Part shown: positions 3,047 to 61,100 of the stretch, piece by piece
Layout of the letters: every line of letters starts with the position of its first letter
Position numbering within the stretch: the stretch's first letter is position 1
Assembly: GCA_030247885.1 (NCBI GenBank)
Contig: JAPDRO010000013.1
Location: 790,938 to 854,937, forward strand
From: Taxawa tesnikishii (nom. ined.)
Lineage: Eukaryota > Ascomycota > Dothideomycetes > Dothideales
Reading direction: 5' to 3'
Length of the DNA: 64,000 nt
Made by a program: the position numbers and the translations under genes
Notes under the pieces: generated by a model
The model's input: the letters and a program-made list of their open reading frames with translations, nothing else
Told to the model about the DNA's origin: nothing
Databases searched by the model: none

Positions 3047-4639
3047 ATGTCTTCATCGGAGAACGACAGCAATGGCAACCAGAACGATGACAAGGAGAAG
3101 AACGGGGCCCTCCACAACCAGTTGGATTCTTTGACCACCGTTTGAGGCATGTTCGGCGCTCCGTCACAGGCAAATGGCTATTGACGACTACTGTTCTGAT
3201 GATCTTCATCTTGAGCGTGTTGTCCATATGTCAGTATTCATGGCTCCCGCATTCTACATTGTGCTGACGCGAATATGTAGATTGGGGAAGTCTCTTCCAC
3301 GTTGAGAGGAACCTGTCCTCACTAGTTGTCTACATCGTCGACTTTGACGCCCAGGTCGCGCCGTACAACACTTCAGGAACAACGCCGTTGGTAGGACCTA
3401 CAATTGTGCAGTTGGGAAGATCAATGGTTGCATCGGGCAAGCCAACTTTGGGATGGGGACCTCTGCCCCCTTCTCGCTTCAATTACGACCCCATCCAAGT
3501 CCGTCAAGAAGTATACGATTTCAAGGCATGGGCCGCGATCATCATAAACCCAAACGCGACATCCATGCTCTACTCGGCGGTTCAAAATGGGAATACCAGC
3601 TACGATCCTCTGGGTGCGATACAGTTGGTCTATCAAGATGCTCGGGACGATACAATCTGGTACGACTTCATGCTCCCGCTCGTTTCGGAGTTTATGACGG
3701 AAGCGCAAAGCATGGTCGGGTCAGAGTGGACGCGGATGGTGCTCCAGAATGCGACGACGGACAGGACACTGCTCACGAACATCGCGCGTGTGCCGCAGGC
3801 CCTTTCGCCGGCTATTGGATACAGCCAGTACAACCTGCGTCCTTTCTATCCTTACCAGACTATTCCGGCTGTCACTGTGGGGTTGATTTACCTGATCATC
3901 ATTTCGTTCTTCTCTTTCGCCTTCTACCTCCCTGTCTGGATGCAGTACTTGAAGCCGGAAGGCCACCCGCCGCTCAAGTTCTGGCAATTGGTCACTATTC
4001 GTTGGCTGGGTACTGTTGCCGCTTATTTTTTCTATCTTTGGCATACTCTTTGATCTCTTTGGCATTCCAGATCAACTTCTCCGGTGGCAACCCTGTGAGT
4101 TCGGAGACTCAGCCTACCTTAATTGAGTACGGCAATCCGGACTCAAATGGAAAACGAACTTTCATGATTTACTGGGTAAGTGATTTTCCCGCCCTTGCAT
4201 GCTTCCCGCTCAATTTTGCTGACCTCGATCAGATGCTGAACTTCGTCGGCATGAATGCGCTCGGTCTCGCATGTGAGAACGTTGCCATGTTCGTCGGGCA
4301 GCCGTGGACCGGACTCTGGCTTATCTTCTGGGTCATCACGAATGTGTCAACGAGTTTCTACGATATCACTATTGAGCCACACTTCTATTACTGGGGTTAT
4401 GCCTGGCCGCTACACTCTGGTAAGTACCATGCCAACGTCACTACAATCGAGGAGCGAACATTAATGAGTGTACAGTGGTGGAAGGCAGCAGGCATCTGTT
4501 GTTTGGTCTTCACTCACGCATGGGGCTCGACTTTGGAATCCTCATTGCCTGGGCTGCTGTCAACAGCGCGATATTCCCATTTGCATGCTGGTGGCTCAAG
4601 TACAAGAACAGCCACCACCTCCACGAATACTGGGCGTAA
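3047..4639 (+). CDS. SNG1-family (DUF3533) multi-pass membrane protein
   Basis: This resembles the fungal nitrosoguanidine-resistance family SNG1/DUF3533, membrane proteins tied to drug and stress tolerance. Proposed exons are 3047-3229, 3281-4175, 4233-4419 and 4476-4639 (introns of 51, 57 and 56 bp), giving about 476 aa. The N-terminus is Asp/Asn/Lys-rich, then PPQPVGFFDHRLRHVRRS, then a first membrane helix (LLTTTVLMIFILSVLSIYWG). A large extracellular/lumenal domain follows with NATS, NTS and NATT sequons, and several C-terminal membrane helices end in ...HHLHEYWA. Two single-base frame breaks are present, in the G run at 3104-3107 and the T run at 4026-4031. One extra base in each restores a continuous family-like protein whose spliced length is a multiple of three. 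I read them as assembly errors, but genuine pseudogenisation cannot be excluded. Confidence 0.8.
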
Positions 4640-5273
4640 ACAGTATGCTGCTGTAATTGAGAACGCAGGTCATAGACAAGACGTTCGCTTGTTTTGACAT
4701 CTACGATGCTTTGCGACTTTGTATAATATACCTTCCGGCATAGCATCTGGCGGAAATCTGTAGCATAGTAATACCTTACCAAGTAATGCCTAATCATGCT
4801 GCGATATGCTGAGTTACAACGTGCCATGTGAGCTTCCAGGGTATCATCGTTAAAATACTTACAAGCAGCACGTCGCCATGGTACTCTCACAACCACATGA
4901 GTGATTTTCTGAAGTCCTTCTCACCTCATCCGGCTCACTCGCTGAAGGTCTCGACAGGCCAAGGCAGATCTTCGGCAACTTCTGCCGGCGAAGGTTCGAG
5001 CAACGTCATTCGTTGTCTTGTCTGCTTGCGCCTCTAGCACTGCAGTCACGAAACACTCGCGCTTACAAAACACAACCCAACACATTCCTTTTCTGACCAG
5101 AATACTAGTCAAGCTGTCATAGACAACGCATTAGTCCGCGTTGTGTTGTCGTTCCTTTTCCTCGCTACCTGTCAGCCATCATCAACCCTCCCCAGGACCC
5201 TTCGTACCAAGCAGTCAAACTGGGTAAACGACGTCTTTCCGGTAAGGCCGCGGCCAGTCCTAGCAAGAAAATC
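4640..5273. other. Intergenic region, upstream of UBA1
   Basis: About 630 bp between the SNG1-like stop and the UBA1 start. It contains only short frames without family resemblance. It should hold the UBA1 promoter and 5' UTR. No motif is convincing enough to name. Confidence 0.5.
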
Positions 5274-8200
5274 ATGACGGTAGGTGGCGACGATGAACAA
5301 CACTCAACTTCAGCTTCGTGTATTGACTGTTCTCTCAGGACACCAAGATGGATGTCGACAGCCCAGCAGCTGCCGTAGAGCAGCTGAAGGAGACCAACGG
5401 CGAGATCGATGAATCCCTTTACAGCAGACAGCTTTACGTCTTAGGCCACGAGGCCATGAAGCGTATGGGCTCCTCCAACATCCTTATTGTCGGTCTTCGT
5501 GGGCTGGGAGTGGAGATTGCAAAGAACATCGCCCTTGCTGGCGTAAAGAGCTTGACACTATACGATCCCAAACCTGCACAGATACAGGACCTTTCCGCAC
5601 AGTTCTTCCTGCATCCGGAGGATGTAGGCAAGCCACGCGCTGAAGTGACGGTGCCGCGCGTTTCTGAACTCAACCCTTACACACCCGTCAAGGTTCACGC
5701 GACAAAGAACCTTACCGACGACCTGAGCCAGCTCAAGGCTTTCCAGGTGGTCGTGCTTACGGATACACCTCTGAAGGACCAGATCCTTATTTCTGATTAC
5801 TGTCACGAGAATGGCATCTACGTTGTCATCACCGACACTTTCGGCCTTTTCGGCACCATATTTAACGACTTCGGAAAGAACTTCACTTGCGGTGACCCAA
5901 CTGGAGAGGAGATTCACTCTGGTATTGTGGCAGACATCGACGCTGATGGCACGGTATCTGCCCTGGATGAGACGAGACACGGCCTTGAAGATGGAGACTT
6001 TGTCACTTTCACGGAAGTTCAGGGTATGGAAGGATTGAACGATGCTCCGCCCCGCAGGATTACTGTCAAGGGTCCATACACTTTCTCAATTGGTGACGTC
6101 TCGGGCCTTGGTGAATACAAGCGTGGCGGTCTCTACTCGCAAGTCAAGATGCCGAAGATCATGAGCTTCGAGCCTTACAGCAAGCAGCTCAAGAAGCCCG
6201 AGCTCATGATGTCCGACTTTGCCAAGTTTGACCGCCCACAGCAGTTGCACGTCGGTGTTCAGGCCCTGCACAAGTTCGCAGAGAGCCACGGAGGCGACTT
6301 CCCCAGAGCTCACAACGACAGCGATGCCGCGGAGGTCTTCAAGCTGGCGCAGGAGATCGCTAAGTCTGGTGGAGAGGAGGTCGAGCTTGATGAGAAGCTC
6401 ATCCGCGAACTCAGTTACCAGGCTCGTGGTGATCTTAGCCCTATGGCCGCCTTCTATGGTGGTCTTGCCGCACAAGAGGTGCTCAAATCGGTATCGGGCA
6501 AGTTCCACCCAATCATACAATGGCTCTACTTCGACGCCTTGGAAGCTCTTCCTACTTCCGTCAAGCGTTCCGAGGAGCTCTGCAAGCCTCTGGGCACGCG
6601 CTACGACGGTCAGATCGCGGTGTTTGGTAAGGAGTTTCAGGATAAGATCGCCAATGTCACGCAGTTCCTGGTCGGCGCAGGCGCCATTGGCTGTGAGATG
6701 CTAAAGAACTGGGCCATGATCGGCCTTGCTACTGGTCCCAAGGGTAAGATCACTCTCACAGACATGGATCAGATTGAGAGAAGCAACCTCAACCGCCAAT
6801 TCTTGTTCAGGCCCAAGGACGTTGGCAAGCTGAAGAGTGAAGCTGCGACTGCGGCTGTGCAGGCCATGAATCCTGACCTGAACGGCAAGGTCGTTGCCAT
6901 GAAGGATCGTGTTGGCCAGGACACCGAGCACGTCTTCGACGAGAAGTTCTGGGAGGGTCTGGACGGAGTCACAGATGCCCTAGACAACGTGGAAGCTCGG
7001 ACATACGTCGACCGGAGATGTGTATTTTTCCGCAAGCCTCTTGTCGACAGTGGCACTCTGGGCACCAAGGGTAACTCGCAGGTCGTGCTGCCTAGGTTGA
7101 CCGAATCCTATTCTAGCTCGCAGGATCCACCTGAGCAGTCATTTCCTATGTGCACTCTCCGCAGTTTCCCCAACCGCATTGAGCACACCATCGCCTGGGC
7201 AAAGGATCTCTTCCACACCTACTTCGCTGGACCTGCCGAGATCGTCAATACCTACTTGACCCAACCAGACTACCTTGGCTCGGCGCTGAAGCAAACCGGT
7301 AACGAGAAGCAGACCCTGGAGACACTTCGCGACTTCCTGGTGACGGACAAGCCGGAGTCGTACGAGGATTGCATCAAATGGGCTAGGCTGCAGTTCGAGA
7401 AGCAGTACAATAATGCTATCCAGCAGCTTCTGTACAACTTCCCCAAGGACGCTAAGACCTCGACTGGTCAGCCCTTCTGGTCAGGCCCAAAGCGTGCTCC
7501 AGATCCGCTCAAGTTCGACCCGAACAACCCAACCCACTTCACCTTTGTACTTGCTGCTGCGAACCTCCACGCCTTCAACTACAACATCCCGCAGAAGACA
7601 TCTGCAGATTCTCAGGAGATCGTCGGTGTTCTCGACAACATGATCGTCCCAGACTTCAAGCCAGATGCTGGTGTGAAGATTCAGGCCGACGAGAAGGAGC
7701 CAGATCCAAACGCAGAAGCACAGGCGGACGAGGCCGAGCTGAAGAAGATCTCCGACAGCCTCCCAGCATCAAAGTCACTCGGCGACTTCAGATTGACGCC
7801 CGTCGAGTTCGAGAAGGACGACGACAGCAACTTCCACATTGACTTCATCACAGCTGCTAGCAACCTGCGCGCTGAGAACTACAAGATCGCAACCGCCGAC
7901 CGACACAAGACCAAATTCATTGCGGGCAAGATCATTCCTGCCATTGCGACCACAACGGCGCTGGTGACCGGCCTCGTCGTGCTCGAGCTCTACAAGATCA
8001 TCGACGGCAAAGACGACATCGAGCAATACAAGAACGGATTCGTGAACCTAGCTCTCCCCTTCTTCGGGTTCAGCGAGCCCATTGCGTCTCCCAAGGGCAA
8101 GTATCAGGGCAAGAACGGCGAAGTTACCATTGACAAGCTGTGGGACCGGTTCGAGACGGAGGATGTGACGCTCGAGCAATTCCTCAAGGACTTCGAGGAC

Positions 8201-8501
8201 AAGGGTCTGAGTGTGAGCATGATCAGCTCGGGCGTCAGTCTGTTGTATGCCAGCTTCTACCCTGCGGCCAAGAACAAGGACCGCCTGCCACTACCGTAAG
8301 TTTCCTCCCAAGTACCGGACTGCTGTTTGTTTTGTAGAGCGTGTGCTAACCTGAATTGACAGGCTGAGTAAGCTTGTGGAAACCATCAGCAAGAAACCTA
8401 TTCCCGAGCACCAGAAGAACGTCATCCTGGAGATTACGGCTGAGGATCAGACGGAGGAGGATGTGGAGATTCCTTATGTGATGCTCAAGCTAAGGAAGTA
8501 G
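5274..8501 (+). CDS. UBA1: Ubiquitin-activating enzyme E1
   Basis: E1 adenylates the ubiquitin C-terminus with ATP, captures it as a thioester and hands it to E2 enzymes in cytosol and nucleus. The protein is about 1033 aa, the usual length. It shows the inactive N-terminal adenylation half ([18 protein letters not shown]), the active adenylation half with the nucleotide loop [13 protein letters not shown] near residue 447, the catalytic cysteine in [11 protein letters not shown] near residue 607, and a C-terminal ubiquitin-fold domain ([25 protein letters not shown]). I place the start at 5274: a two-codon exon (ATG ACG), a 59-bp GTAGGT...CAG intron, then GAC ACC AAG joins in frame to the ATG at 5348. 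Starting at 5348 would give a protein five residues shorter. A 67-bp intron (8296-8362) precedes the last exon. The frame is intact throughout. Confidence 0.96.
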
Positions 8502-11633: not shown

Positions 11634-11957
11634 TCAAAGAAAACATGGGCTGAACAACAACAACAAGCACCCTCTTTCAGGGTACAGACATCCCAAACTG
11701 TAAGCAACGTTCCTTGATGATGTTGATTTTCTTGAACATCAAATGATTATACATCCATTTTAACCAATCTGTCAATCCCCTGAAGGCCCTGAGAAGCCTA
11801 TTGACGAGGAAAAATGCTATGCTCTTTATGACTCTTTCACAATCCATCCAACTCGCTTTCCCTCTTCACTTCAAACATCTTCATTCTCTCTGGTTACTAA
11901 TGTTGAGGAAGCACACAACCTTGGTGGAACCGCAACGCCGGCCAGATATCAGCAACA

Positions 11958-12993
11958 ATGGCGGATTCCACCGTCACCGAACCCTTCCCCATCTTCTTGA
12001 CCGCCCACCGCTACCTCCTCTATGACGTCAACACAGTAACCTACGTACGTCGCGAACACAACATCACCGGCGTCCTAATCGGCGGCCTGCCCCAAGCTCC
12101 GCAGCAAAACGTCTTCCTCGGCATGCCCTTGGAGCTGATGCCCGAAGAGGCTCGCTTGCTGGTGGAGAAAGAGGTCGCGTATATCGTCGACGATGTTGCT
12201 GCGCACAAGAAGAACCTCTTGTCTGCCAACGGCACTGAGGCGGGGCTGAGCGCGGAGGAGAAAAAGCCTTCATGCGAAGCTTAAAAGAAAGGGGAATCGA
12301 TGCCGCAAAACTACAGCAGAAAAAAGCGGGCGAGAGGAAGATAGAAGGATTGAAGAAGATGGCCGCGAAACAAGGCGCAGCTGCGGGGATGGAGAACTGG
12401 AACGATATCCCGGACGACATGTTTGCACCTTCTGCGAGACGTGCGGGCGGGAAGAAAGCGAAGAGGGAAGGGCCAGTGCTGCGCCTACGCCGCCGCCTGA
12501 GCGCGCCGGCGATACAACTGGCGCTGAGGAGGAATCCTTGTTTGGTGCCCCGCCCAGCAATCCACCGCCTGCATCAGAAACCTCGACTGATCTCGCCTCC
12601 AAGACGGAAGAGGCTCTACACATCACGCCTGCGACCTCATATCCTCCCCTCGCCGTCTCTGCCCCCGACCCACCACTACCTCCGCCCCAAGTGCCGTCCT
12701 CGTATCCGTTATTCAAGCATCTGCATGAGAAGGAGTACTTCCTTGCGCCTGGGTTACGGTTTGGTTGTCAATATATGGCATATCCGGGTGATCCGTTACG
12801 ATTCCACAGTCATTTCCTGGTGAACGGGATGGATTGGGATGAAGAGTTTGAACTCCTGGATCTTGTGGGCGGAGGAAGGTTGGGAACGGGTGTTAAGAAG
12901 GGGTTCTTGATTGGGGGAGAGGAGAGGAAGGGCGAAAAGAACGGTGGGAGAGGGGATGTGAGAGCTTTTTGTGTGGAGTGGGGTGGGATGTAA
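11958..12993 (+). CDS. SEN34: tRNA-splicing endonuclease catalytic subunit Sen34
   Basis: Sen34 cuts the 3' splice site of intron-containing pre-tRNAs within the Sen2-Sen34-Sen15-Sen54 complex. The N-terminal domain (PFPIFLTAHRYLLYDVNTV) is followed by a charged linker and the C-terminal nuclease fold: FKHLHEKEYFLAPGLRFG, then MAYPGDPLRFHSHFLV with the expected Tyr and His, and GGGRLGTGVKKGFLIGG with the Lys. Two one-base frame breaks are present, at the A5 run 12261-12265 and the G3 run 12470-12472. Adding one base to each gives a continuous 345-aa protein, the usual size. The gene is essential in yeast, so true loss is unlikely; I read these as assembly errors. No intron is needed. It shares a short divergent promoter with the small membrane protein. 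Confidence 0.88.
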
Positions 12994-13640
12994 CGGATGG
13001 GGACGGACGGGCAGATAGGTTTAATGACATGAGATTCTTCGACATGCACTGTTTTTCGTGTCATACTCTTTGGTGGTACATGTGCTTTTCTGTGTAACGA
13101 GTTTTGTCTGTCCTAATTGTTACACGGCAGTCTGGGGCACGATCGCCATATGTACTTCTGGGCGTGCGGTCTTTTGAACGCACACTTCCCCCTCAACTAC
13201 TTCTTGTCCGTCTTCACCCACTAGTTGACCGTAGATACTCACCACCACCACCTTTTACTACGAGTTCAGCCCAGCTCTTCTGTTTTTTGTCGAGGACTAA
13301 ACAGTTCCTGCTACGAGGATAAAGCCCCGCCGCACATGTGCTCTGATACATCGCCACCCCGCTCAGGATGGCCAATGAAGCGAGAGCACAGCCTTGCTCA
13401 GCCTTGCGATGAGCGGCTGAATATGTAGAGATCTACTTCCAGCTGATTGATGTTGCGATACTGCACCACTCCTAACACACAGAGCTCTCAGGCGGTTTCG
13501 GAGTGCATTCGACAAGCTTGCCCGCAGTACATGCGTAGGTCTAACATGTAAAGGTGGGACGCTGCGGCAGTATAATACCCTCACTGTGGCAGCAGAGTAC
13601 GACAGCAGCGCGGAAAGAGACGCACATTGCAACCTCTGAC
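12994..13640. other. Intergenic region, no gene seen
   Basis: About 650 bp between SEN34 and the HET-domain gene, with only short frames. It presumably carries the SEN34 3' UTR and the HET-gene promoter. Confidence 0.45.
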
Positions 13641-15816
13641 ATGGTGGTTGATGATGAGCGCTTGCCGCCCATTTGCCCACGATGCAGCCGGATACCACTT
13701 GAAGCTTTCTATGCTTCGTCCCGGAAGAACGCTGTCAAGATTACAGTAACCGTTGAGGAACAACGAGTAGCTGAGAATTACTGTGCGTTGCCGGTAGAGT
13801 GCAGACTAATCCCATCCCGTCTTCATCTTGATAACAGTACGGACGCGGAAGAGGATGATGCAGAGAAAACTATCGAGGCCGCATTGTTTGCGGAGCACTT
13901 CGAAGATAGGTTTAAGGTACGAGACCAGTCACTCAAATCTGATGAATATTCGTCGTCGTACACAGATGGCATAACCACGTAAACAGGTACGGTGGGACGG
14001 TATCCTCAGGAGCACGCGTAAAAAGGAGGGAACGTTCTCAAAGCTACTGCCTCTGGACTTCAACGCCACCAGTCCTTTGCTACGATCCGACTCGCCGGCT
14101 TCGTTTCAGCTCATGAAGTGTCGGATTCAGGAATGCTTGGAGAACCACATGCCCTGCCGACGTCATGCATACAGCGAATTGGGTTATATGCCAACAAGGC
14201 TCATTTGCGTGAATGAAGATCTGGGAGCAGAGAATGTCCGTGTCATTGTTACGGAGGAACTCAATCTGAAACATGATGCCAAAAGGCCAGCGTATGTTGC
14301 TTTGAGTCATTGTTGGGGTGAGGGGGTGTTCAGGAATCTGCAATCACAAAGACTGAGAGCCTGCCATACCGACGCCGCGGCATTAGAATTGCTGGTCTTC
14401 CCTAAACTTCCAGCATGCCATCGAAGTGACGAGGCAAATCGGAGTGGCTTATCTATGGATCGATTCCCTGTGCATTCTGCAAGACTCAAAAGAGGATTGG
14501 CATAAAGAGTCGGCACAAATGGCAGATGTATATGCTGGCGCTGTGCTTACCATTGCAGCCTCCGGTTCTGCTAGTGCCAATGGAGGGTTGTTCTTCCCCA
14601 GAGGGTACTTTCCGGAAGACGCTAAACTGCAGCAACCTGGAACAAGGGCTCAATCTTCTGGAGGCCGGTGCCTTGCCGAATGCAGCTCTGCAGATGGTCG
14701 TAAATCTCTGGTTCTGCTCGGCCCTGAAGATTACTGGGAGGGAAGATATGTCAGAGGCGAAGCACAGAGGCCGAAGGAGCTTCATGAAAGTCCGCTTGTC
14801 AAACGTGGTTGGGCGCTGCAAGAACGCCACCTCTCTACACGGATCATACACTTCGCAGCGGCGATTCTCGTCTGAGAGTGTGTCACAACTACCGCAGATG
14901 AGATGCATCCACGTCCTAAACCCCGGGACAACAGAGACTGGGATCGTGGTGATAGGAGTGCCAATCGCTTCTGTGACCAGCTCGGACAACTCGGTATGTG
15001 CGGCGGCAAAAAGTTCTATATCAGAGCTGGCAGCGCTTGATGGAGCAACTGAGCACTTGCTCGTATACCTTCCTCACAGACAAGGTGTCTTCGATCGCCG
15101 GTATGGCTCAAGTATTTCAGAAGGCCACTGGCGACAACTACCTCGCCGGCCATTGGCAATCTCACCTCGCTTCATCACTGTTGTGGAAGGTTGAACCTTT
15201 GAACGGAGTAGCAGAATCTCGGGAAGAGCTCTCCCAGATACCCTCTTGGTCATCATTATCCTACAACGGAGCGATCGCAGCAGGCAGAATCGGAACCGGA
15301 GCGACCATACGTCTTGGAAGTGGGGCTGGTCGCGTGGGACTGCAAGTCAACAAGATTGTGAAGATTGTGGAATCAACGTCAAATCCATTCGGTGACGTCG
15401 CGACCTGCGAAATCTATGCAAATGTTTGGATGGCAGAAATACACGTGGCCTTGCTGGATCCCGGGAAACAAAATCCCCACAGCTGGAGTTCGCAAGTCTT
15501 TCTGCAGCAGGAAGTAGCAGAGAATGTGCTGGAAGGGTCTCGCTCGATTGGATCTTATTGGCCGGATTCCCGGGCGGAGCACTCTCTTCTGCATTCAGCA
15601 TCTTCACCTCTCTATTGCATCCTCGTCCAGGCCTCCGGCGATCGAGCCGGCTCAGCCTGGAAGGGACTTGTTGCCCGCCGTCAGCAACGCAACCCTCAGG
15701 TATATCGAAGGATCGGATACTTTGATGGCAAAGATGCTCGGTTACGGTTAGGGAAGAGCACCACAAACTTGCCAGAAACCCTTGGTTTTAAATGGGAAGA
15801 CGTGATACTCGTCTAG
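13641..15816 (+). CDS. HET-domain (heterokaryon incompatibility) protein, reading frame interrupted
   Basis: HET-domain proteins trigger cell death after fusion of genetically unlike hyphae or in innate-type responses. The start MVVDDERLPPICPRCSRI is followed by a 70-bp intron (13917-13986). Diagnostic HET blocks appear in order: YVALSHCWG, then NFQHAIEVTRQIGVAYLWIDSLCILQDS, then MADVYAGAVLTIAAS, then SPLVKRGWALQERHLSTRIIHFA, and the LAGLAKYF-like block SIAGMAQVFQKATGDNYLAGHW. The frame breaks at the A3 run 14348-14350, the C3 run 14400-14402 and the A5 run 15008-15012; one base more in each restores about 702 aa. In addition, codon 14873-14875 is TGA where the family has the Trp of its W-E-C motif, a single G-to-A change. 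That one is not a homopolymer error, so the gene may be a real null allele. Confidence 0.8.
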
Positions 15817-16687: not shown

Positions 16688-19473
16688 CTACCACTCCCTC
16701 CCAACCTCCCCAGGACCTCCGCTCCCGCCTTCCCAAAGCTCCCTACCCACCATCTCCACCAACCCAAGTACCCTCCTCTGCACCGTCGCACCGTCTCTCC
16801 TGTTTTTCCCCTCTCTCCTCGACCTGGAAATCCTCTCTGCAAACTCCCACAGTTTGCCTTCTGCCTTGACTGTCGCCTCCATCCCATCCTCCCTCCTTTG
16901 CCCATTCTCCATCTCGTCGGGATCTGTACAGGGACGTGTGGGCATCCACTCGGGTGTTAGGGAGACGAGGGCGGGTACTTTGGAGTCTTTGGAGCGGCGC
17001 ACGGCAAGGATCCCCTCTTCTTCAAACCTCGTGTACGCGTTGCCCAAACTCTGCTTGTTGACCGCTTCCCAATAACTCAAATCGCCCTGATGATAGAGCG
17101 TCTTACCCAGTAATTGCGCCTTGTCCTGGGCTTTCTTGAGCGGGAACCATGGCTCCCCCACGCTTGCAGATCCGGACGTTCCTCTGGGTGGTGCCAGCAT
17201 CAACAAGCTCACAGCGCCGAGCCAAGAAGCTTCAATGAACGGCCAGATCAGGAAGCAGTAGAAATCAAAATTTTCTCTTCCGCTCTGGCGTTCCTGGGGG
17301 CTGAGTTCGATCGTCTCGACGTCACCCTCACCACCTCCACCGCCGGACGCGCGCGTGATGGTGATGATGCCATCGTTCTCCAGTCCAGTGAGCGTCGTGG
17401 CAAGGTTCTCGGCCAACGAGGTCGTCGGGAAGATAAATTCTGCGCGGAAAAGCTGCCACTCATATCAGCCATCAACTGTGCTTATTCCCAAAGTCACTTC
17501 GAGAACCGAAGGGGGCAAACAAACTTGTGATAAGAAATACACGTAGTCATACAACTCCCGATACCCGATGCGCTGGTTTTCGGGTCCGCCGCCCTGTTTG
17601 ACTTTCGTATATACGCCCGCGCACACCAGGGCCTCGGAAACGAACAGATGGATGGTCATGTTCCGGTAAAAACTCAACTGGAACCGATCGACGGCGAAAT
17701 ACGTTGGTTCGGGCAACCCCTCGACGACGCCCACGAGTGAGGGTCCGAGGACTTCGAGCCCGCGCTCGACGACCGCAGCGGTGGGTAGACCACCGAAATG
17801 CGCGATGCGCCCGCCGCGACTGCGCACTAGAGTGCAGAGCCAGTCGACGCGCCGCACGAGCTCTGTTTTGCCGACGCCACGGCCGCGGAGAGTGAGGAGG
17901 ACTGTGCCAATTAGGGCGGTCGGCATGACAACGGAGACGGTGTTGATATCGGCTAAGACTTTGTAGCCGAGAGTGGTCAGCAGGCGCCTCCTCACGAGGG
18001 TGTCTTGTGAGTTGCGGATCTGGGGCGGAAGGCTTGACATGCGGGAGCGCTGGTCGTCGATGAAATTGCGCAGGCTCCAGGGGAGTGGAAGCGGACGTCG
18101 ACGCGGCCGAGTTTGAGGGAGAGGATGGAAGAGCTGGAGAGGAAGGAGAAGAGATTTTCTTTGGGTTTGGGCTGGCCGAGGAGTTCGGAGATGTAGGAGC
18201 TGGGAACAAGGGCGTGAGTAAGCTTCTTGAAATGTAAGGAGAAATGAGTGGAAAGGTGGCGTACTCGACTTCGATGACTTTGTCGTACTGCGTGCTGACG
18301 GGGCATATTATGGCGTCCCGGACACGGCCGGAGAGAACACTGTCTAAGAGGAAACTGAGGATGCCGAACTTGGGCTGCAGGAGCTTGCCTGTGCGTGACC
18401 GGCCACCCTCTACCATGCGAGGGTCAGTTGTGCGATACTCGAATCGAGCGTCAGAGTCTGGTTCTTACCGACGAAACATTCAAAGTTGTAACCGTTCTGC
18501 AAAAGGGTATCTATGTAAGACTGGACGAGGGTAGTGTACAAGGCGTCGTCGCCAAATGACCGGCGTATCCACATGGCGCCTTGACACTGTTCAGCAAGAC
18601 CACAAACATAGTGGGCGAGTTTCACTGACCTGCATGCTGAAGGAAAGGACCAACGACGGGAAAATTCAGATTATCTCCGGCCACGACGATTGGCAGAGTT
18701 AGGCCTAAGCGGTAACAGATGAGTTGTAGCGAAACGTAGTCGACGTGAGAACGATGACATGGTAGGAAAATGATGGATTGCTGCTTCTTGGCCGCTTCTT
18801 CGGCTACAGCACGTAACCGCAGTACTTCTTCGCTGGAGATATGGATGCCTTGTGCTAGTCAGCCCTCGCTCTTCGTAACGCAGTGGGCTAGGATGGTAGC
18901 TGCGCAACTGCAGTGTCTCACCTTGATGGTACGCTCTTGTGAGCAACTGCGTGGCCAGGTAGTACGCCCCTCTGATAAAGCGTTTACTCTCCATCTTGCA
19001 TATCATCTTATCCGTCCAATCCTCGGCAACCTCCTTCAACTGACTTTCGATCTCCCTCCTCCTCTTTTCCTGCATCTCCTGATCTGCTGCAGCAAGCAGC
19101 CCCTCTTCGATCTCCACGCTCACCCTCTTTTGCGCCAATTCTTCCATCTTCCCCAAAAGCTGTGGGTTTCGCAGAACCATGCCCTTCATGCGGTCGCTGT
19201 AGCCCTTGTAGAAGACGTCCTGGCCGACGATGGTGTCGTAGGAGCGCCATCCTGTGCCGGAGACATGGAGACTGACCTCGCGGAGGAAGTCGAAAGGCGT
19301 CGAGCGAAACCGGGCATAAGGCTCGAGAAGAGGCTGGTCTGGCGAGGTCTGCGGTGGATGAGGGAGAGCTGGTGGACTGTTGGAAGTTACGCCGGGAGGA
19401 TGGAGAGTTAGACGATCCCCAAGGATGGAGAGGTCGGGAGCGATGGTAGACGAAGGAGACTTGGGGAAGTCAT
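16688..19473 (-). CDS. PlsB/GNPAT-type glycerolipid acyltransferase (G3P or DHAP acyltransferase)
   Basis: Transfers an acyl group from acyl-CoA to glycerol-3-phosphate or dihydroxyacetone phosphate, the first step of glycerolipid or ether-lipid synthesis. The four acyltransferase blocks are visible: block I FLPCHRSHVDYVSLQLICYR (the H-x4-D catalytic pair), GAMWIRRSFGDD (block II), FVEGGRSRTGKLLQPKFGIL (block III), and AIICPVSTQYDKV (block IV). Exons run 19473-18922, 18848-18630, 18579-18469, 18409-18265, 18199-17525 and 17452-16688, about 822 aa. Two breaks, at the + strand G4 runs 18080-18083 and 19463-19466, each need one more base; then the total length is a multiple of three. The start at 19473 depends on the second correction and is less sure. 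It is divergent from ALG2 with only 265 bp between starts, so the promoter is likely shared. Confidence 0.85.
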
Positions 19474-19738
19474 AGCGGATGTCAGCACCGCAATGTCATG
19501 AGCATGGTCGATGTAGATAGTGCAAAGCCGTCTCCTGTGCCTGCGCCTGCGCCTGTTCCCGAGGGTATGTGTTGTGACAATACCACCGAGGTATACTGCA
19601 CTGTCCACATGTAGTTAGTACCTGATGAAACATGCAGCTTCCCCGGACGCGATGACGGATTGCGGGGTCGTACGAGTCAAACTCAATCTGTCCTTTCATT
19701 CATCGATAACTCTATATATATATAACCATACCGCCACC

Positions 19739-21365
19739 ATGTCGACCGCAGAACCCAGACAGAAGCGCGTCGTCTTCATACACCCAGACTTGGGCATCGG
19801 CGGCGCAGAGCGTCTCGTCATCGACGCCGCCGTAGGTCTCCAATCGCGGGGTGCCAAAGTCACCATCTTCACATCGCACTGCGACCCTTCACATTGCTTC
19901 GATGAGGCCCGAGATGGTACGTCCTCCATTTCACAATGCCCACGCCAGAGCTGGAGGCATGCACAAGGCGCAAGCTGAAACCTCTTCCTCCAAGGTACCC
20001 TCGACGTCCGTGTGCGCGGAAAAACCTTCCCGGCCTCTATCCTAGGACGATTCGCAATCCTCTGCGCCATTGTGCGGCAATTGCATCTCGTGCTCAGTAT
20101 AGCACTGTTCTCATACGAGCTCGACTCATTGGATCCCGATACCATCTTCGTCGACCAACTCAGCGCTTGCGTGCCCCTTTGCGACTCGTCTACTCTTCCG
20201 CTCGTATCCTGTTCTACTGCCACTTTCCCGACAAGCTGTTGGCGAAGAAGAGTTCTGGCGCGCTGAGATTGGTCAAAGCCTTTTACCGCATTCCGTTCGA
20301 TTTCCTCGAGGACTGGAGTACGAGTTGTAGCGATGGAATTGTCGTCAACAGCCTGTTCACGGGCAGAGTGGTCAAGCAGGCGTTCCCGAGACTGAGGCGG
20401 AGAAAGCTCGATTGCATCTACCCGTGTGTGGATACCGCCATTGCTGAAGGGACAAAGCGCGAGAAAGAGCCGCTGTGGCCGGGCAAACAGGTTTTTCTGA
20501 GCATCAACCGGTTCGAGGAAAAGAAGGATATCGCACTCGCCATCAAGGCGTTCGCCGGTCTAAAGGAGGAGGAGAGAAAATCCGCAAGGTTGATCATAGC
20601 AGGTATTCTTTTTACAAAACCTTCCAATTCCTCATAGAATCCTACTCACATCTCGCAGGCGGCTACGACCCACGCGTGCGCGAAAACGTCGCCTACCACA
20701 AATCCCTCGAATCCCTAGCCTCATCGTTCAACCTGTCGCACTCAACTCACCAATCCGTCTCCGACCCTTCCAGCCTCCCCACCGACACCCAAATGCTCTT
20801 CCTCCTCTCCGTGTCCGGCGCACTGAAGCAGAGCCTCCTCGACTCGGCCGACCTGCTACTCTACACGCCCCTGAACGAGCACTTCGGCATCGTGCCTCTG
20901 GAAGCCATGCTCAATCGCGTGCCGGTGCTCGCTGCCGACCAAGGCGGACCACGGGAGACTGTGGTTGATGGGTCGACGGGTTGGCTACGTCCGACAGAGG
21001 AAGTGGAAAAATGGACGCAGATCATGGCCGAGGTGGTGGGAATGGCGAAGCACGTGGCCGGTCGGCAGGAGCTTTCGGAAATGGGCTTCAGAGGCGAAAA
21101 GCGCGTCAGAGAGGAATTTTCAAAGGAGAAGATGGCGTGGCGGATGGAGCTTGAGATTGATAGTCTGAAGAGCGTTAAGCGGGAGCCCATAGTTCCCGTG
21201 TGGATTGTGGCGAGTATTGGGTTCACGATCTTTGCTGCCATCGGAGGGTACGTCTTGACGAATGTGTTGTTTAGGTTTATTGCATTGGATGTGGAGCTGG
21301 AGAGGCATTTGAACGAGACGAGGGCGAAGGCTGAGGCGGAGGGCAAGCCGTTGTTGCCTTGGTGA
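19739..21365 (+). CDS. ALG2: Alpha-1,3/1,6-mannosyltransferase Alg2
   Basis: Adds the second and third mannose to the dolichol-linked precursor of N-glycans on the cytosolic face of the ER. Exons are 19739-19916, 19995-20602 and 20659-21365 (introns of 78 and 56 bp), about 497 aa. Landmarks: the N-terminal [19 protein letters not shown] loop, [36 protein letters not shown], the GT4 block [15 protein letters not shown], the donor-binding [11 protein letters not shown] (E-x7-E) near residue 336, and a C-terminal membrane helix ([22 protein letters not shown]). One frame break lies in the CCCCTTT run at 20174-20180; one added base restores the conserved sequence. The ATG context CCACCATGT is strong. 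Confidence 0.93.
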
Positions 21366-22180: not shown

Positions 22181-24366
22181 ATGCAGCCATTATCGCGCCT
22201 AGAGTGCGCTTCTGCGCCTCTGCGCCGCTCAGCATTCTTCCTCAACACTGTCTCTCGCACCTCCAATGCTCCTGTACGAAGGTGCGTTCACAGACACGTG
22301 TCACCCTCGCCATTCCTCCCCACCCTCAAGCTGCGGAATCAACCCGATATCCGGGTATCGCGCCAGGTCTTCCAGCTACGAGCGGCATCGAGCGCCGCCG
22401 AGGGTGCCGGCTTGAGAGGCAAGGGATTCCCCTCTGGATTCATACAGAAAACCTTCGCCTATCTGGGTTTCTTCGTTGTTTTCAGCGGCGCGCTCGTAGT
22501 CGCCTTCTTCCTCTATGATGCTAGTACCTACCGGGATGACTCCGACGCCACCGACATTCCTGTCTCCGAGTACGCCCTTAACCCGAGAAGAGGAGGACCC
22601 AAGAATCTGCCTATCGCCGATCATCTCGTCGACGATGACGACTCGCCCGAGAAGAAGGCGCAGAAGCACAAGCCCAAGCTCGTTGTTTTGGGAACCGGCT
22701 GGGGCAGTGTGCCTCTGTTGAAGAGCCTGAATCCAGACGAGTACCACGTCACCATCATCTCGCCGTCCAACTACTTCCTGTTCACGCCCATGCTGCCATC
22801 TGCCACCGTCGGCACGCTCGAGCTCCGCTCGCTGGTTGAGCCCGTCCGCAGAATCACTGCAAGAATCAAAGGCCATTTCATGAAAGCCGAGGCAAAGGAT
22901 GTCGATTTCTCCGCAAAGTTGGTAGAGGTAGCTTCCAAGGGCCCGAATGGCGAGGAGCAGCGCTTCTACGTTCCATACGACAAGCTCGTGATTGGTGTTG
23001 GTATGTACAGCCAATTCTTTTACCCACGACTTCAGGAACTGACAAGGTTCAGGCTCCATTACGAATCCTCACGGTGTCAAGGGTCTCGAGAACTGCTACT
23101 TCCTCAAGGACATCAGCGACGCCCGTCTCATCCGCAATCAGATCGTTCGCAACTTCGAAACCGCCTGCCTGCCAACCACGCCCGATGAGGAAAGGAGAAG
23201 ACTGCTTTCATTCGTCGTCAGTGGCGGTGGTCCCACCGGTGTTGAATTCGCTGCCGAGTTGTACGACATGCTCAACGAGGATCTCGTCAAGTATTACCCA
23301 CGCATCCTGCGCAACGAAATCTCCGTGCACGTCATTCAAAGCAGAGGTCACATCCTGAACACGTACGACGAAGCGCTTTCCCGCTTCGCCGAAGCCCGGT
23401 TCGCTCACGATCAAGTCAACGTCATGACCAATTCTCGCGTCAAGGAGGTCCGCCCAGACCGCATCCTCTTCAGCCAAAAAGACGACAACGGCACCATCGT
23501 GACCAAGGAGCTGCCCATGGGCTTCTGTCTCTGGTCCACCGGCGTCTCGCAAACCGAATTCTGCCAGACTCTCGCCAAAAAGCTCGACGGACAGAACAAC
23601 CGACACGCGCTCGAAACGGACACTCACCTCCGCCTGATCGGCGCCCCTCTGGGCGACGTCTACGCCATCGGCGATTGCTCCACCGTCCAGAACAACACTT
23701 CCGACCACATTGTCAGTTTTCTGAGAACCCTGGCCTGGGAGCGCAACAAGGATCCGGAAACGATGCAGATCTCGTACCGGGACTGGCGCACCGTGGCCAA
23801 GAAAGTCAAGCAGCGCTTCCCGCAGGCGGGGACCACCTCAAACGCCTCGATCGCCTCTTCGAGCAGTACGATAAGGACAAAAGCGGCACCCTTAACTTTG
23901 GTGAGCTTAACGAGCTCCTCAAACAGATCGATTCCAAACTCACGTCGCTCCCCGCGACGGCTCAGCGCGCGAACCAGCAGGGCGAGTACCTCGCCCGCAA
24001 GCTGAATGCGATGGCGCGCGCGGCCCCGGGCTCGCGGCAAACGACATCGATTACGGCGACCTGGATGAGGCGGTTTATAAGGCGTTTGAGTACAGACATA
24101 TGGGCAGTTTGGCGTACATCGGCAACGCCGCCATCTTCGATTTCAATGGGCTGAATTTTGGTGGTGGCTTGCTGGCCGTGTACCTCTGGCGCAGCGTCTA
24201 CTTCGCCCAAAGCGTCAGCCTCAGGACGAGGATGTTGCTTGCAATGGACTGGACCAAAAGGGCCATGTTTGGTAGAGGTAAGGGCATACATCCCTTTTCA
24301 TTGTTTGGGTCCGTGTAAGGAGGGGAACGCATGCTGACGTTGGTTGCAGATCTCATGAACTTCTAG
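22181..24366 (+). CDS. NDE1: External alternative (type II) NADH dehydrogenase with EF-hand
   Basis: A single-subunit NADH:ubiquinone oxidoreductase of the inner mitochondrial membrane facing the intermembrane space; it oxidises cytosolic NADH without pumping protons. The N-terminus is Arg/Ser-rich (mitochondrial presequence), then a membrane segment (FAYLGFFVVFSGALVVAFFLY). The FAD fold is KLVVLGTGWGSVPLLKSL and the NADH fold is SFVVSGGGPTGVEFAAEL. An inserted calcium-binding EF-hand (YDKDKSGTLNFGEL) marks the calcium-responsive subgroup of this family. Exons are 22181-23000, 23053-24277 and 24350-24366, about 687 aa, ending DLMNF. Frame breaks at the G4 run 23828-23831 and the G3 run 24028-24030 flank the EF-hand region; one base added to each gives an intact protein of normal length. 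Confidence 0.93.
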
Positions 24367-37445: not shown

Positions 37446-39321
37446 ATGGACCGTAATCAAGTTCTCTGCCCTGCAGCAATCGAACGATCCATTGCCGAAG
37501 GTCACATCATCGTTATCCACGAAGGATACGCCCTGAAACTCGATGGCTGGCTCGACAAGCATCCTGGCGGGCGCTTGGCCATTCTGCACATGGTCGGCAG
37601 GGATGCAACAGACGAGATCAACGTGTAAACATGCCCTTTTATTCCCCAGCTCCGAGGCGGGTTCTACCGTATGATGTTGTACGAATGTTCCCTAGGGTTC
37701 AAGCGACAGGCGACAGTGATGATGTCTTATCGGCTTGGAAGAGATGTCGATATCTGTCACCCCATTGCTGATGTTCGTGTTAATTAAGGTACCATTTCCC
37801 AACGACCCTGCAGCGCTTAAAGGCATACCGCATCGGCCGGATACCACAACCCTGGACAAACCTCGAACCTCCGATTCGCGCTTCCGCAAACAGACAGCAT
37901 GGAAACATTCTTATGGAACGGAAGGAAGATATCCCCATTGTCAGGGTCGACCCCCATGATCGATGAGAAGGAGAGCAGACCGTACAAGCGTTATACTGAG
38001 CATGCATCACGGGAGGGGTATACGTCGGCTATGGAACAGAAGGAGTTTAGGGATGGCGTCCGCGACAATCCATCGGTCGACCAAGCCACGCAATACGCCA
38101 TTGCGCTGGAATATCGGGCGTTGCATGAACGATTGAAGGAGGAAGGCTTTTACGACTGCCGATACTCCGAGTACGGCAAGGAGCTTGTCCGGTATCTGTT
38201 GCTGTTCAGTGCATTCGTCTACCTATTGAGATCCGGGTGGTATCTCACCTCAGCATGCTTCCTGGGCATGTTCTGGGTATGTTCGTTCCGTCGTGGCTAA
38301 GTCATGCGCGAGTAGCTGACGTGGCATGCAGCAACAAATAATGTTCACAGCACACGACGCTGGCCATCGTGGAATCACAGGGAACTTCATTGTCGACACC
38401 CTGATCGGCGCCTTCATCGCCGACTTCTGCTGCGGCTTGTCCATAGGATGGTGGAAGAGCTCACACAACGTGCACCACCTCATCACCAACATGCCCGTAC
38501 GCCATTCTCACTCCTATTCCCTCGTTCCCGTCCCCTCCCTCCCGCATGGCAATCCTGATTAATCAATGTTCCAGGAGCACGATCCAGACCTGCAAAACGT
38601 ACCCCTCTTCGCCACGTCACCGACCTACTTCCGCTCCATTTTCAGCTCTTTCTACAACTTCACCTTTGTTTGGGATAGCGTGGCCGACTTTCTGGTCTCA
38701 TACCAGAAATATACCTATTACCCCATCATGGCCATCGCCCGCTTCAACCTCTACCTCCTCTCTTGGCTACACCTCATGTCGCCGCGCGCAGCCAACTTGG
38801 GCTCGGCTTGGTGGACCCGTCCTGTGGAGATCGCCATGATGGCATGCTATTGGACTATCTTCGGATATGGACTGCTTTGGTGCACACTCCCTAACTGGCC
38901 GACTCGAGTGGGGTTTGTGTTGATAAGTCACTGTATTACCATGCTACTACACGTCCAGATTACACTATCCCACTGGGGTATGCCGACTTCCGACCTCGGA
39001 CCCTCGGAGTCCTTTGCCCAGCGTCAATTACGGACGACCATGGACGTCGACTGTCCGCCCTGGCTAGACTTCCTGCATGGCGGATTGCAGTTTCAGGCTG
39101 TACACCACTTGTTCCCAAGAGTTCCGCGACACAACCTGAGGAGATTACAGGTCCTGGTCAGAGAGTTCTGCGAAAAGACGAGCATCAAATATCAGTGTTA
39201 CGATTTCGTCAAGGGTAACAAAATCGTAATCTCAAGATTAGAGGAGGTTGCCCAGATGGTGGATACACTAGTCAAGTGCCAAGTCCATATGGCTGAGACG
39301 GGCGAGAGCGGGTTGCATTGA
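37446..39321 (+). CDS. Cytochrome b5-fused fatty-acyl desaturase (sphingolipid delta-8 type)
   Basis: An ER membrane enzyme that introduces a double bond using electrons from its own cytochrome b5 domain; the overall pattern best fits fungal sphingolipid delta-8 desaturases. The heme motif HPGG is near residues 39-42. After a 164-bp intron (37625-37788) the frame resumes at YHFPTTLQRLKAYRIGRIPQPW, which is diagnostic. The three His boxes are HDAGHRG, HNVHH and QAVHH (the last with the Gln typical of b5-fused desaturases). Further introns are 38277-38331 and 38497-38574. A frame break at the C5 run 37951-37955 needs one base fewer, giving 525 aa. Substrate specificity (delta-8 sphingolipid or front-end fatty acid) is inference. 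Confidence 0.87.
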
Positions 39322-39808: not shown

Positions 39809-40822
39809 TCATCGCACAGCACGAGCAAGAAGATCTGTGGTGTGCTCCCACACCTTCTGCGCCACACCTTGTTCCCTCAACCTCTGCATCTTCTTGCCCG
39901 CCGCTGATGTCTCACCCTTCCAATCCATCAGATACGCACCGCTGCCTACTGTTCCATGGGAGCCCACGGCCACGTGTAGGCTATCAAGAGTGGCCGTGCC
40001 TTGAGGTTCGGAAGGTGCGTGAAGTTTGTTGGCGGGGTAGCGCGGGGAGGTGGAGTGGAAGAGATGTCGCTGGCCGCTCTCGTCGATGTTGACCGAGAAT
40101 GGGTACATGAGAGGCCACATGCCGTAGTTGTAGACAGCAGCCAATGGCGGGGAAGCTGTTGGTGTAGATGTTAGTGCCGACCAAGCCTGGGTAGACGTGG
40201 ACGAGAGAGACGCGATGCGAAGCGGCCAGGTGCTCCATGGCTAGCGAAGTCATGGTCACGGAGTGCATGGCACAGCTGACAATGTTGTAGCCATGCTTGA
40301 GGTCGAGGTCGTTGGTGTTGATGTTGCCCTCGAATCCTCCGCCCAACACGCTGACAACACGCCCTGGTGCTGGTTGCGCGTCTTCCAGCAATGGGAGCAG
40401 GTTTTGAACAAAGCGCATACGGGCGTAGTAGCGCAAGGCGAATAACTTGTCCACCCCCTCGCTTGTCTCTCGTCGTCCCACCAGCGAAAGCCCGCCGGGG
40501 GTTATAAACAACAGATTCAACGCCTTTCCACGTCTCTTGATGCTCTCGCACGCCTTGTCCACATTGCTGATGAGCGACACGTCGGCCTCGATGAAGTTGA
40601 AGGAGCCGCGCGGGTTGATCTGGCCGAGTTCCGTGAGTAGCGGCGCGGCGTTTCTCTCGCTGCGTCCGACGATGTACGCCGTCGGCGCGTGGGCGTTGAG
40701 AGCGAGTTGACGCAGCGCGCTTCGTCCAATGCCGCTGCTTCCCCTACGAGAAGTGCCACGAGACGAGGCACCGTGGAGCTCAAGCTGCCATTAGACTTGC
40801 GCACACTGTCCAGGCTGACCAT
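39809..40822 (-). CDS. Short-chain dehydrogenase/reductase (retinol dehydrogenase-like)
   Basis: An NAD(P)-binding SDR of about 337 aa in one exon. It starts MVSLDSVRKSNGSLSS; the Rossmann loop is VALLVGGSSGIGRSALRQLA. Further motifs are YIVGRSERNAAPLL, NLLFITPGG where most SDRs have NNAG, RVVSVLGGGFEG, and AMHSVTMTSLAMEHLA. The usual Tyr-x3-Lys is not obvious: the equivalent region reads YNIVSCAMHS, so the protein may be a divergent, possibly non-classical SDR. Two frame breaks exist: the + strand C4 run 40741-40744 one base short and the G4 run 40149-40152 one base long. Correcting both gives a continuous protein of unchanged total length. It is the last gene before the RIP block; its promoter abuts AT-rich DNA. 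Confidence 0.75.
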
Positions 40823-51545: not shown

Positions 51546-51550
51546 ACTTC

Positions 51551-56880: not shown

Positions 56881-56958
56881 ATTTCGTTCTTAATAGATTT
56901 CGCGCTATTCTATTAGTTATATATAGCTTTTATAAGTTATTTAAGTAATTTACTTATA

Positions 56959-57655: not shown

Positions 57656-57678
57656 AGTTAAAAGCTACTCGTAGAAGT

Positions 57679-57780: not shown

Positions 57781-58121
57781 CCTTCCCGAGCCCCAACCTT
57801 CTCGAAACCCACACACTATACTGTCATAAGGTTATTCTCTCTGCATGCCAAACACCACTCATATATATGCCATATACATGGAACATCAAGGGCGGCGGTC
57901 TTAAAAGGAAAAAGATGAGGCGCCTTGTGCATAGGCCACTCCCGCATTTTCGCAGGGCGGCCTCTCCAAACAAAGACCAGCCCTGTGTCTATGCGACGTG
58001 ATCAGTACGCTCTAAACAATTGATCCTGAGCATCACATGGATCCTTTAAATCCTTAGAAAGGTAATATAGCTATGTCTGGCCTCGCAAGTATGGCAGCCG
58101 TGAAGGCAAGCCAAGACTCAG
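57781..58121. other. Helicase gene upstream region
   Basis: About 340 bp of normal composition between the 14-bp array and the helicase ATG, presumably promoter and 5' UTR. I see no clear core element. Confidence 0.4.
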
Positions 58122-61100
58122 ATGGATGATTTTCATCGTCTCTTCCAAGTAGTCGCCCAGCACCGCATCCTTGTTTGCATCCATTGTCAGTATGCAGTCG
58201 TACCTTCGCAGCTCGCCAAACATCTTCGTGTGCATCACAAGCGTCTCAGCTTACAACAACGGCGGGACATTATTGCCAAAGTCGGGTCTTTTACCGAACT
58301 TGCGCAAGTCGAGGCAGATGTCATCTATCCAGCAGCAACAGAGCCTCCCGTAACGGGACTTCCGGTGTACTTCGACGGCTTGAAGTGTGGCGGGAAAGAT
58401 GGCGAAGGCAGGCTTTGTCCCTATATATGCCGCACTCCGCGTGGCATGCAAGATCATTGTGAGCGGCAACACGGCTGGGTCAACGGACAGAAGCGAGGCG
58501 GCGATGCTCGTTTGAAGCAGGTCCATACCCACAACAAGCTGTGGTCTTGCGACCGCGCCTGTCAGCGTTTCTTCAAGGTCGGAAGCTGGCAGAGGTACTT
58601 CGAGGTCCAAGTAGCGGACCTGGAGATTTGCGGTCGGAGGCGAGCCGGTCACCAGCGTGACTTCTTCCGGACGCAAGAAGAAGACATCCTTCAGGCAGAG
58701 CGCGACGCCGCATCTGCGGCCAACCGTGTCCGCGGATTCGACGAGCATCGTTCTACCGTGGTACCATGGCTCAGAGAGACCGGCATCGTCGACCATGTCT
58801 GCGGCTTGAAGAAAGACGAGATCCGAGCAGCGATCGCCGTGCCCTCGCGAGACGAAGGATGTCCTCTGCGGACGATCGTCGATGCGATGGAGGACGTGCT
58901 CAGGGAGGCGCACGGCTGGTGTTTCGACGGACCCGACTGTATGCTCACTTGGCCATGTCGCGTCGTTCTCAGTCGGTTCCAGTCGTCGCAGGTCGAGTCG
59001 ATTGGGAAGGTTCGGCCGTTCGATCCTTACAAGGAGCCCGGCACGCTCAAGGTCTACTTCAAGCTGGCGTCACAGTTCCTGTCGTACCTGGAGCGAGTGG
59101 CGATCTGTGACGAGTACCACTTCAGTGCTGACTCGGAGGAGACGATCCGGCCAGAGGACGTGATCGAACCGACGGACAAGCAAAGGGTGGTGTGGCATAA
59201 CCTCCGTCGGTTAGCAGAACGGGGAGCGACGGGCACGGGTGAAGGGATCAAGGGCCAACTGAGAGATGGGCTGGTTGAGTTATGGATGCTCGTTATCCGT
59301 CACACTACCGGAGCCCGACGGTACCGCTCGCCAATAGTGAGCTTCTGCGCGATGCTAAGCATCAAGCCGTCTACGCAAGGCTGGATGGAACCCGGCAACT
59401 TCAACAGCAGTCTGTCTGCGATGATATGGGTCGCGCAGCTGCTGATCTTCTATGACTGTGCTCGCAAAGAGCGGCAGGGTGGGGAGAAACGCTCGCGCTC
59501 GTCAAGGAATGCTGTGAGAGTTATCTGCAGCAGACGGCCGAGACGCCGATGGGGAGATACTCCGCTGGCGCCTGTTGCTGTTTCGCATCTCGAAGGACAG
59601 CGTGGGTGATCATGAGGCCTGTTGGGACGAAAGCGAACAGGTCCTGACATACGAAGATACAGAGCTGCGTATGGACCAGATCCCCACGCTACTGCTCTCC
59701 GAATACCGTGAGTGCGAACGGCTACTGTACGACGACTTGCTGCTGGGTCAGAAGGACCTACGCCGCATGCAGTCTTGGGCGCTTAGAGATAGCGGCAACG
59801 TCGATACCGTCGGCTGGAGCTTGATCCAGCATCGTGACAACGCTCTCCTGCTGAGGGGGACGGACAAAGCTCTGTTGGCCGCCGTTGAGCGTTCCGAGCA
59901 ACTGTGCCGCCTTTTCCTTCAGCAAGACCGTCGATCAGCGAGCGGCTTCGTTTGGAGGGACAGTGCGCTAGCCGGCTACGAGGCAACTGTGCAGGAGTTC
60001 TTGAAACGCTTGTGTGTCCTCGTTCACATCAGTGGCGGTCAGCCCATCCGCGAAAGCGAGTTCTTCTCCATGACCTGGCGGAACACGCAACGACGACGAT
60101 CCATCACACTCCGCCACGATCGTGTCATGATACATGTCAAATACCACAAAGGTCAGCAGCAGACGGGCAGGTACAAGGAAAACATCCGGTTTCTCGCCAA
60201 TCCGGTGGGCGACCTGTTGCTGGATTACCTCGTCTATGTCGTGCCGCTACGACAGGTCTTTCTGCGGCAGCAATCACCAAAGGCACTGCTCTCCTCGTTC
60301 TTGTGGGAGAAAGACGGAAAGGTGTGGGGCGAAGGACGGTTGAGTCGTTGTCTGGAGGAAGCCAGTGCTCGGGCGTGCACACCCCGGCTTCACGTTTCCA
60401 ACTGGCGCCAGATGAGCGTGGCCATCGTCAAGACCAAGTTTGCGAGCAACATAGGCTGCTTCGAAGTCAACGAAGACGACGAGGACGCCGAGGAGATGGA
60501 GGAGGATATCCGAGCGATGACGAGACAGCGCAACCACAAGACACGCACGGTCAACAGGGCGTATGCCAATCAGACGGGAGCGACCTTCGGCAACGTGTGG
60601 GACGGGCTGATCCGAATGGGACTTCGCGCGTCAACGTTGTGGCAGGACTTCTGGGGAGTGGAGACGATGCTAAAAGGCAAGAAGCGAAAGAGGGACGGAG
60701 AAGAGTGTCGACTGAAGGAACGACTTGCCAAGGGTGTCTATCGGCCCCGCAAACCGTGGTCGGCAGAGGCTCTGCTGGAAGGGCTCAGAAAGCTCTACGG
60801 CAACCAGAGAATGATGTGGAAATCGAGGGAGCAGGAACAGACCCTCACCACGATCATGTCGTGGACGGAGCAGGTGGTGGCCATCTTGCCAACCGGAGCC
60901 GGAAAGAGCCTGTCCTTCATGTTGCCGTGTACGCTGCCTGATGCCGGGATCACCATCCTCATCGTGCCGCTCGTATCCCTTCGGGCAGACCTGCTTCGGC
61001 GGATACGGGAACTGAACATCGCTCACCTCGAATGGTTGCCGGGAGAAAGTCGAGAAGCATCGCTGATAATCGTCAGCGTTGAGGCTGCGGCCACAACACA

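What the first reader, a model, noticed from the sequence alone, without database searches (positions are those of the whole stretch)
3104..59554. Recurrent one-base homopolymer frame breaks in at least ten conserved genes
I counted about 18 single-base losses and 2-3 gains, all at homopolymer runs. They lie in the SNG1-like gene, SEN34, the HET gene, the acyltransferase, ALG2, the NADH dehydrogenase, ELP4, the carboxylesterase, the desaturase, the second SDR and the helicase. Changing one base per run restores the conserved sequence on both sides, and every spliced length then becomes divisible by three. Essential genes are among those hit. Mass pseudogenisation is implausible; this looks like uncorrected long-read homopolymer error, and automatic annotation here will be fragmented or will invent tiny introns.
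Basis: partly seen in the sequence, partly recalled or inferred. Interest (0 to 1): 0.7.

Follow-up and report, generated by a model that had tools for sequence, protein, structure and literature searches.

The report
Homopolymer errors in a fungal assembly
Many genes near this fungal chromosome end look broken, but most likely only because the genome assembly miscounts short runs of identical bases, so the broken genes are probably sequencing artefacts.

Summary
I count 17 breaks (14 loss-type, 3 gain-type), not 20-21. By eye 14 of 17 lie on a run of 4 or more. Where profile alignments bound the site, 6 of 8 intervals hold such a run against 1.3 expected (P = 0.0003). 'All at homopolymers' is not upheld: a HET and an ELP4 break are not on such runs, and HET also has an in-frame stop. 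Many other frame changes are ordinary short introns.

Two tests outside the window point to the cause. A chaperonin subunit and an HSP70-family gene on other contigs show the same break. The telomere-linked helicase at the window's end has at least 33 copies in this assembly: 14 read over 4.45 kb vary in 12 columns, 11 of them indel columns; over 0.48 kb all 33 vary only in three G-run lengths. This is residual homopolymer-length error of a long-read assembly, a known artefact. No reads were available, so it is inferred, not proved.

The parts
3104..4636 (+). SNG1-like (DUF3533) gene; loss-type frame break on a T6 run at 4026-4031; two other frame changes are introns
11955..12990 (+). SEN34; loss-type break on an A5 run at about 12261-12265 and a second, imprecise one at about 12466-12490
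13626..15813 (+). HET-domain gene; gain-type change within 14356-14402 (no run of 4), loss-type break at A5 15008-15012, in-frame TGA at 14873-14875
16691..19495 (-). Glycerol-3-phosphate acyltransferase; loss-type break on a C4 run at 18080-18083; several introns
19738..21362 (+). ALG2; loss-type break at about 20174-20180 (C4 next to T3); two introns
22181..24315 (+). Type II NADH dehydrogenase with EF-hand; loss-type breaks at about 23828-23831 (G4) and 24024-24030 (C4 next to G3); one intron
24892..26258 (-). ELP4 (PAXNEB); loss-type breaks within 25816-25837 (no run of 4) and within 25404-25428 (C4); a third place unresolved
33441..35608 (-). Carboxylesterase; loss-type break on a T5 run within 34838-34850; one intron
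37440..39318 (+). Cytochrome-b5 fatty acid desaturase; gain-type break on a C5 run at 37951-37955; three introns
39812..40822 (-). Second SDR; loss-type break on a G4 run at 40741-40744 and gain-type break on a C4 run at 40149-40152
58104..62553 (+). Telomere-linked helicase (OrsD + DEAD + Helicase_C); loss-type breaks on G4 runs at about 59481-59484 and 59551-59554; a third G run near 59855 varies between copies
5327..8498 (+). UBA1 (E1 enzyme): no break seen, one intron that keeps the frame (contrast gene)
63914..64000 (+). Telomere repeat, 14.5 perfect units, contig end

Best explanation
The frame breaks are consensus errors of a long-read assembly. Runs of roughly five or more G or C, and five or six or more A or T, are often recorded one base short and now and then one base long; each miscount inside an exon shifts the reading frame. 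Shown here: the frame breaks, their tie to runs in the bounded cases, their presence in conserved genes on other contigs, and near-identical copies that differ almost only by one-base length changes. Inferred: that reads would show other lengths, and that the sequencing method is the cause.
For: 17 breaks in 11 of 16 window genes. 6 of 8 alignment-bounded intervals hold a run of 4 or more, expected 1.31, P = 2.7e-4. Same kind of break in a CCT subunit (G4 run) and an HSP70-family gene (A4 run) on other contigs. At least 33 helicase copies of about 100% identity: of 14 read in full, 12 of 4452 columns vary, 1 substitution and 11 indel columns, that is 10 indel events, 7 in runs of 3 or more, 1 in a run of 2, 2 outside simple runs; over about 480 bases all 33 vary only in three G runs, four against five bases in 32:1, 32:1 and 19:14. 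C/G runs of 6 or more are scarce against a third-order Markov model: 2 against 7.1 expected (window genic part), 0 against 6.8 (48 kb from 8 contigs), 5 against 10.4 (chaperone loci) (sums mine).
Against: No reads were seen. Two of 8 bounded intervals hold no run of 4. HET has an in-frame stop that a run miscount does not explain. Break density is uneven: 17 in 29.2 kb of window coding sequence against 2 clear ones in 25.3 kb of chaperone coding sequence, and the lower density of runs there (2.57 against 3.70 C/G runs of four per kb) explains only part; stops inside matched stretches of 7 of the 16 chaperone genes were not resolved. A/T runs of 6 or more show only a mild deficit (5 of 8.8, 5 of 11.3, 12 of 13.5). 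Selection against long runs in exons could cause part of the C/G deficit. The telomere repeat is perfect over 14.5 units. Two helicase sites read four in 32 of 33 copies, which a shared real deletion would also give.
Confidence: 0.93

Rival explanations
1. Real frameshift mutations: a decaying subtelomere, or a mutator lineage without mismatch repair in which homopolymer indels accumulate in the living genome.
For: The window is a chromosome end and has more breaks per kb than the chaperone genes. HET carries an in-frame stop. Two helicase sites are shared by 32 of 33 copies.
Against: ALG2 and SEN34 are indispensable in yeast (recalled), and a CCT subunit on another contig is hit too. MutS_V domains occur at about six places, four in open frames of 601-999 aa; MutL was not searched and the MSH types were not told apart. 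Ten indel events against one substitution among 14 copies is the reverse of usual mutation spectra (recalled).
Confidence: 0.04
2. The cells restore the frame by ribosomal frameshifting or transcriptional slippage at the runs.
For: Losses outnumber gains 14 to 3 and many breaks lie on runs.
Against: Runs are short (mostly four or five bases), of all four bases, and both directions occur; near-identical copies disagree in length. No transcript data were available.
Confidence: 0.01
3. The frame changes are unrecognised introns.
For: Many frame changes in these genes are in-frame GT-AG introns of about 50-160 bases; in 16 chaperone genes, 17 of 24 junctions fit an intron to within one residue.
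Against: At the bounded breaks the profile positions on both sides meet or overlap with no bases to spare, except HET; at two chaperone junctions the pieces overlap by 4 bases and no intron fits.
Confidence: 0.02

Closest known systems
Residual systematic homopolymer indels in nanopore assemblies (Homopolish paper, PMC8011154; passages read)
   Same: Mainly indels in homopolymers that shift the frame of protein-coding genes and survive polishing
   Different: The platform of this assembly is unknown; no reads seen
Gene-fragmenting errors of long-read assemblies (Kastor paper, PMC12007338; passages read)
   Same: False deletions dominate and are most frequent after runs of four to five bases
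   Different: There A/T runs dominated; here C/G runs are at least as frequent among the breaks
Homopolymer indels in conserved genes of ascomycete nanopore assemblies (PMC9453082; passages read)
   Same: Filamentous fungi; indels inside conserved genes at low depth, rarer at higher depth
   Different: Depth and polishing of this assembly are unknown

Membership tests
Homopolymer-length error of a long-read assembly | Indels, not substitutions, dominate among copies that should be alike | tested here: met
   11 of 12 variable columns among 14 helicase copies are indel columns
Homopolymer-length error of a long-read assembly | Breaks fall on homopolymer runs more often than chance | tested here: met
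   6 of 8 bounded intervals, expected 1.31, P = 2.7e-4; 2 misses
Homopolymer-length error of a long-read assembly | Losses outnumber gains | tested here: met
   14 loss-type, 3 gain-type in the window, direction read from frame order
Homopolymer-length error of a long-read assembly | Genome-wide, indispensable genes included | tested here: met
   A CCT subunit and an HSP70-family gene, 2 clear breaks in 16 genes, density lower than in the window
Homopolymer-length error of a long-read assembly | Accurate reads disagree with the assembled run lengths | not testable with these tools
   No reads held
Mutator genome without mismatch repair | MutS/MutL homologues lost or broken | tested here: inconclusive
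   MutS_V at about six places, four in open frames of 601-999 aa; MutL not searched
Telomere-linked helicase | Helicase gene next to the telomere, repeated at many chromosome ends | tested here: met
   32 of 33 listed copies lie about 1.39-1.49 kb from a contig end, the other beside an internal telomere array on C2 (distances mine)
Telomere-linked helicase | RecQ-type helicase by tree | not tested
   Only Pfam DEAD, Helicase_C and OrsD

The most novel reading that the evidence does not exclude
The G-run differences among the telomere-linked helicase copies are real, and slippage at these runs switches single copies on and off: a phase-variable gene family at fungal chromosome ends.
Probability: 0.02. 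Interest if true: 0.75.

Novelty: already known. Interest (0 to 1): 0.12.

Why it matters
Gene sets predicted from this assembly will be fragmented, may contain false tiny introns and will miss parts of indispensable genes; in the stretch read, all 33 telomere-linked helicase copies would be filed as pseudogenes. Near-identical multi-copy genes give a built-in test for such errors without reads.

Tried and rejected
Codon-usage scoring was too weak to place breaks. Rfam at gathering thresholds found nothing in the window, ARAGORN no tRNA. A test on ribosomal RNA run lengths was not possible because the machine did not answer. ALG2 pieces have no useful match among solved structures. Overlapping long frames in eight random 6-kb samples (20 pieces scanned; views) look in places like further breaks, but I did not separate them from introns and do not count them. 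The run-length spectrum is supporting evidence only. Rejected: mass pseudogenisation, recoding, unrecognised introns (see rivals). Of the chaperone hits, 16 genes were checked; the CCT-like domain on C31 and the short HSP70 hits on C33:697768, C8 and C32 were left out beforehand. Of 24 junctions there, 17 fit an intron to within one residue, 3 fit loosely, 2 are the breaks reported and 2 (on C23 and C33) stayed unresolved.

Full report
What the window is. It is G000:C5:790938-854937 of a 29.37-Mb genome in 34 contigs. It ends at the contig end in 14.5 perfect GGGTTA units, so it is a chromosome end. About 41-56 kb is AT-rich (GC 0.21-0.34 in 4-kb steps). The species was not determined; a HET domain, a family-2 peroxidase and short GT-AG introns suggest a filamentous ascomycete (my inference).

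Checking the breaks. I translated the frames, scanned stop-free pieces against Pfam and read three-frame views at places where homology changed frame. A break was counted where both sides seem to belong to one gene and no intron fits. Eleven of 16 genes examined are broken: the SNG1-like gene, SEN34, HET, GPAT, ALG2, NADH dehydrogenase, ELP4, carboxylesterase, desaturase, second SDR and helicase. They carry 17 breaks, 14 of loss type and 3 of gain type. In UBA1, the first SDR, a peroxidase, an LRR-like gene and a SET gene I saw none. Profile support on both sides is good for DUF3533, GPAT, ELP4 and the carboxylesterase, and by successive domains for the NADH dehydrogenase. It is weaker for ALG2 and for the first HET piece (E 0.21). 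For the desaturase, SDR2 and helicase breaks I relied on the views and partly on recalled family knowledge.

Tie to homopolymers. By eye 14 of 17 breaks lie on a run of at least four bases; that count is open to bias. With bounds set by alignments and widened by six bases, 6 of 8 intervals (6 in the window, 2 in chaperone genes) contain such a run, expected 1.31 from the window's coding sequence, P = 2.7e-4. For runs of five or more it is 2 of 8, expected 0.23, P = 0.02. The misses are a HET and an ELP4 break. HET also has an in-frame TGA at 14873, so it may be partly a real pseudogene.

Not local. Two conserved families were searched in the whole genome, Cpn60_TCP1 and HSP70, and 16 genes were checked for junctions that an intron can explain. 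Of 24 junctions, 17 fit a GT-AG intron to within one residue, 3 fit loosely, 2 stayed unresolved, and 2 have pieces that overlap by 4 bases with no intron that fits: a CCT subunit on C1, on a G4 run, and an HSP70-family gene on C3, on an A4 run. Stops inside matched stretches of 7 of the 16 genes were not resolved, so two is a lower bound. That is 2 clear breaks in 25.3 kb against 17 in 29.2 kb in the window (lengths, exon bounds mine). The window is richer in breaks. Chaperone genes hold fewer C/G runs of four (2.57 against 3.70 per kb), which explains only part of the difference.

Internal replicates. The helicase at 58.1-62.6 kb has 33 listed matches of about 100% identity (33 of 53 candidates were scored, so this is a lower bound). 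Thirty-two lie about 1.39-1.49 kb from a contig end; the other lies beside an internal telomere array on C2. I read 14 copies in full, the window's included. Twelve of 4452 alignment columns vary: one substitution and eleven indel columns, which make ten indel events, seven of them in runs of three or more, one in a run of two and two outside simple runs. Of the other 19 copies I read about 0.48 kb. Over that stretch the 33 copies vary only in three G runs: four against five bases in 32:1, 32:1 and 19:14. By the views five is the length that keeps the frame at the first two; at the third, the window has five within its open 1012-aa frame. No copy has five at all three. Real divergence would be expected to bring more substitutions than indels (recalled). 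Consensus error explains it simply; where 32 of 33 agree, the error would have to be systematic, and a shared real deletion is not excluded by this test alone.

Run-length spectrum. Against a third-order Markov model, C/G runs of six or more number 2 (7.1 expected) in the window's genic part, 0 (6.8) in 48 kb from eight other places and 5 (10.4) in 66 kb of chaperone loci; A/T runs of six or more 5 (8.8), 5 (11.3) and 12 (13.5). Runs of exactly four exceed expectation in 7 of 8 comparisons (sums mine). Selection in exons could contribute.

Rivals. Loss of mismatch repair is not supported: MutS_V occurs at about six places, four in open frames of 601-999 aa, but MutL was not searched. Recoding would need the DNA to be right, and disagreeing copies speak against it. 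Introns explain many frame changes in these genes but not the bounded breaks, HET perhaps excepted.

Literature. I read passages of three papers. Kastor (PMC12007338): most indel errors in its main test case are false deletions, most often after runs of four to five bases. Homopolish (PMC8011154): systematic nanopore errors are mainly homopolymer indels that shift frames. A survey of ascomycete nanopore assemblies (PMC9453082): homopolymer indels in three conserved genes fall with depth. Other papers were seen only in search listings.

Verdict. An artefact of a known kind, well supported but not proved without reads. A useful by-product is that multi-copy telomeric genes expose it from the assembly alone.

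Noticed in passing
window 58104-62553; 33 listed places in G000: A telomere-linked helicase (OrsD, DEAD, Helicase_C) in at least 33 copies of about 100% identity, 32 about 1.4 kb from a contig end; either strong homogenisation between ends or an effect of assembly and polishing.
   Followed up: partly
G000:C2:865102-865764 (locus L073): Two telomere arrays face each other with exactly 500 N between them inside a contig: probably two chromosome ends joined by scaffolding, unless the N stretch was withheld.
   Followed up: partly
G000:C24 (266,415 bases): A small contig with helicase copies near both ends and a telomere array at its start: possibly a complete small chromosome.
   Followed up: no
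window 14873-14875: In-frame TGA in the HET gene where a tryptophan would be expected (expectation recalled); not a run-length change.
   Followed up: no
window 41000-56000: AT-rich subtelomeric block, GC down to 0.21, with no open frame of 120 aa or more listed between about 40.8 and 54.5 kb; it could be mutated repeats.
   Followed up: no
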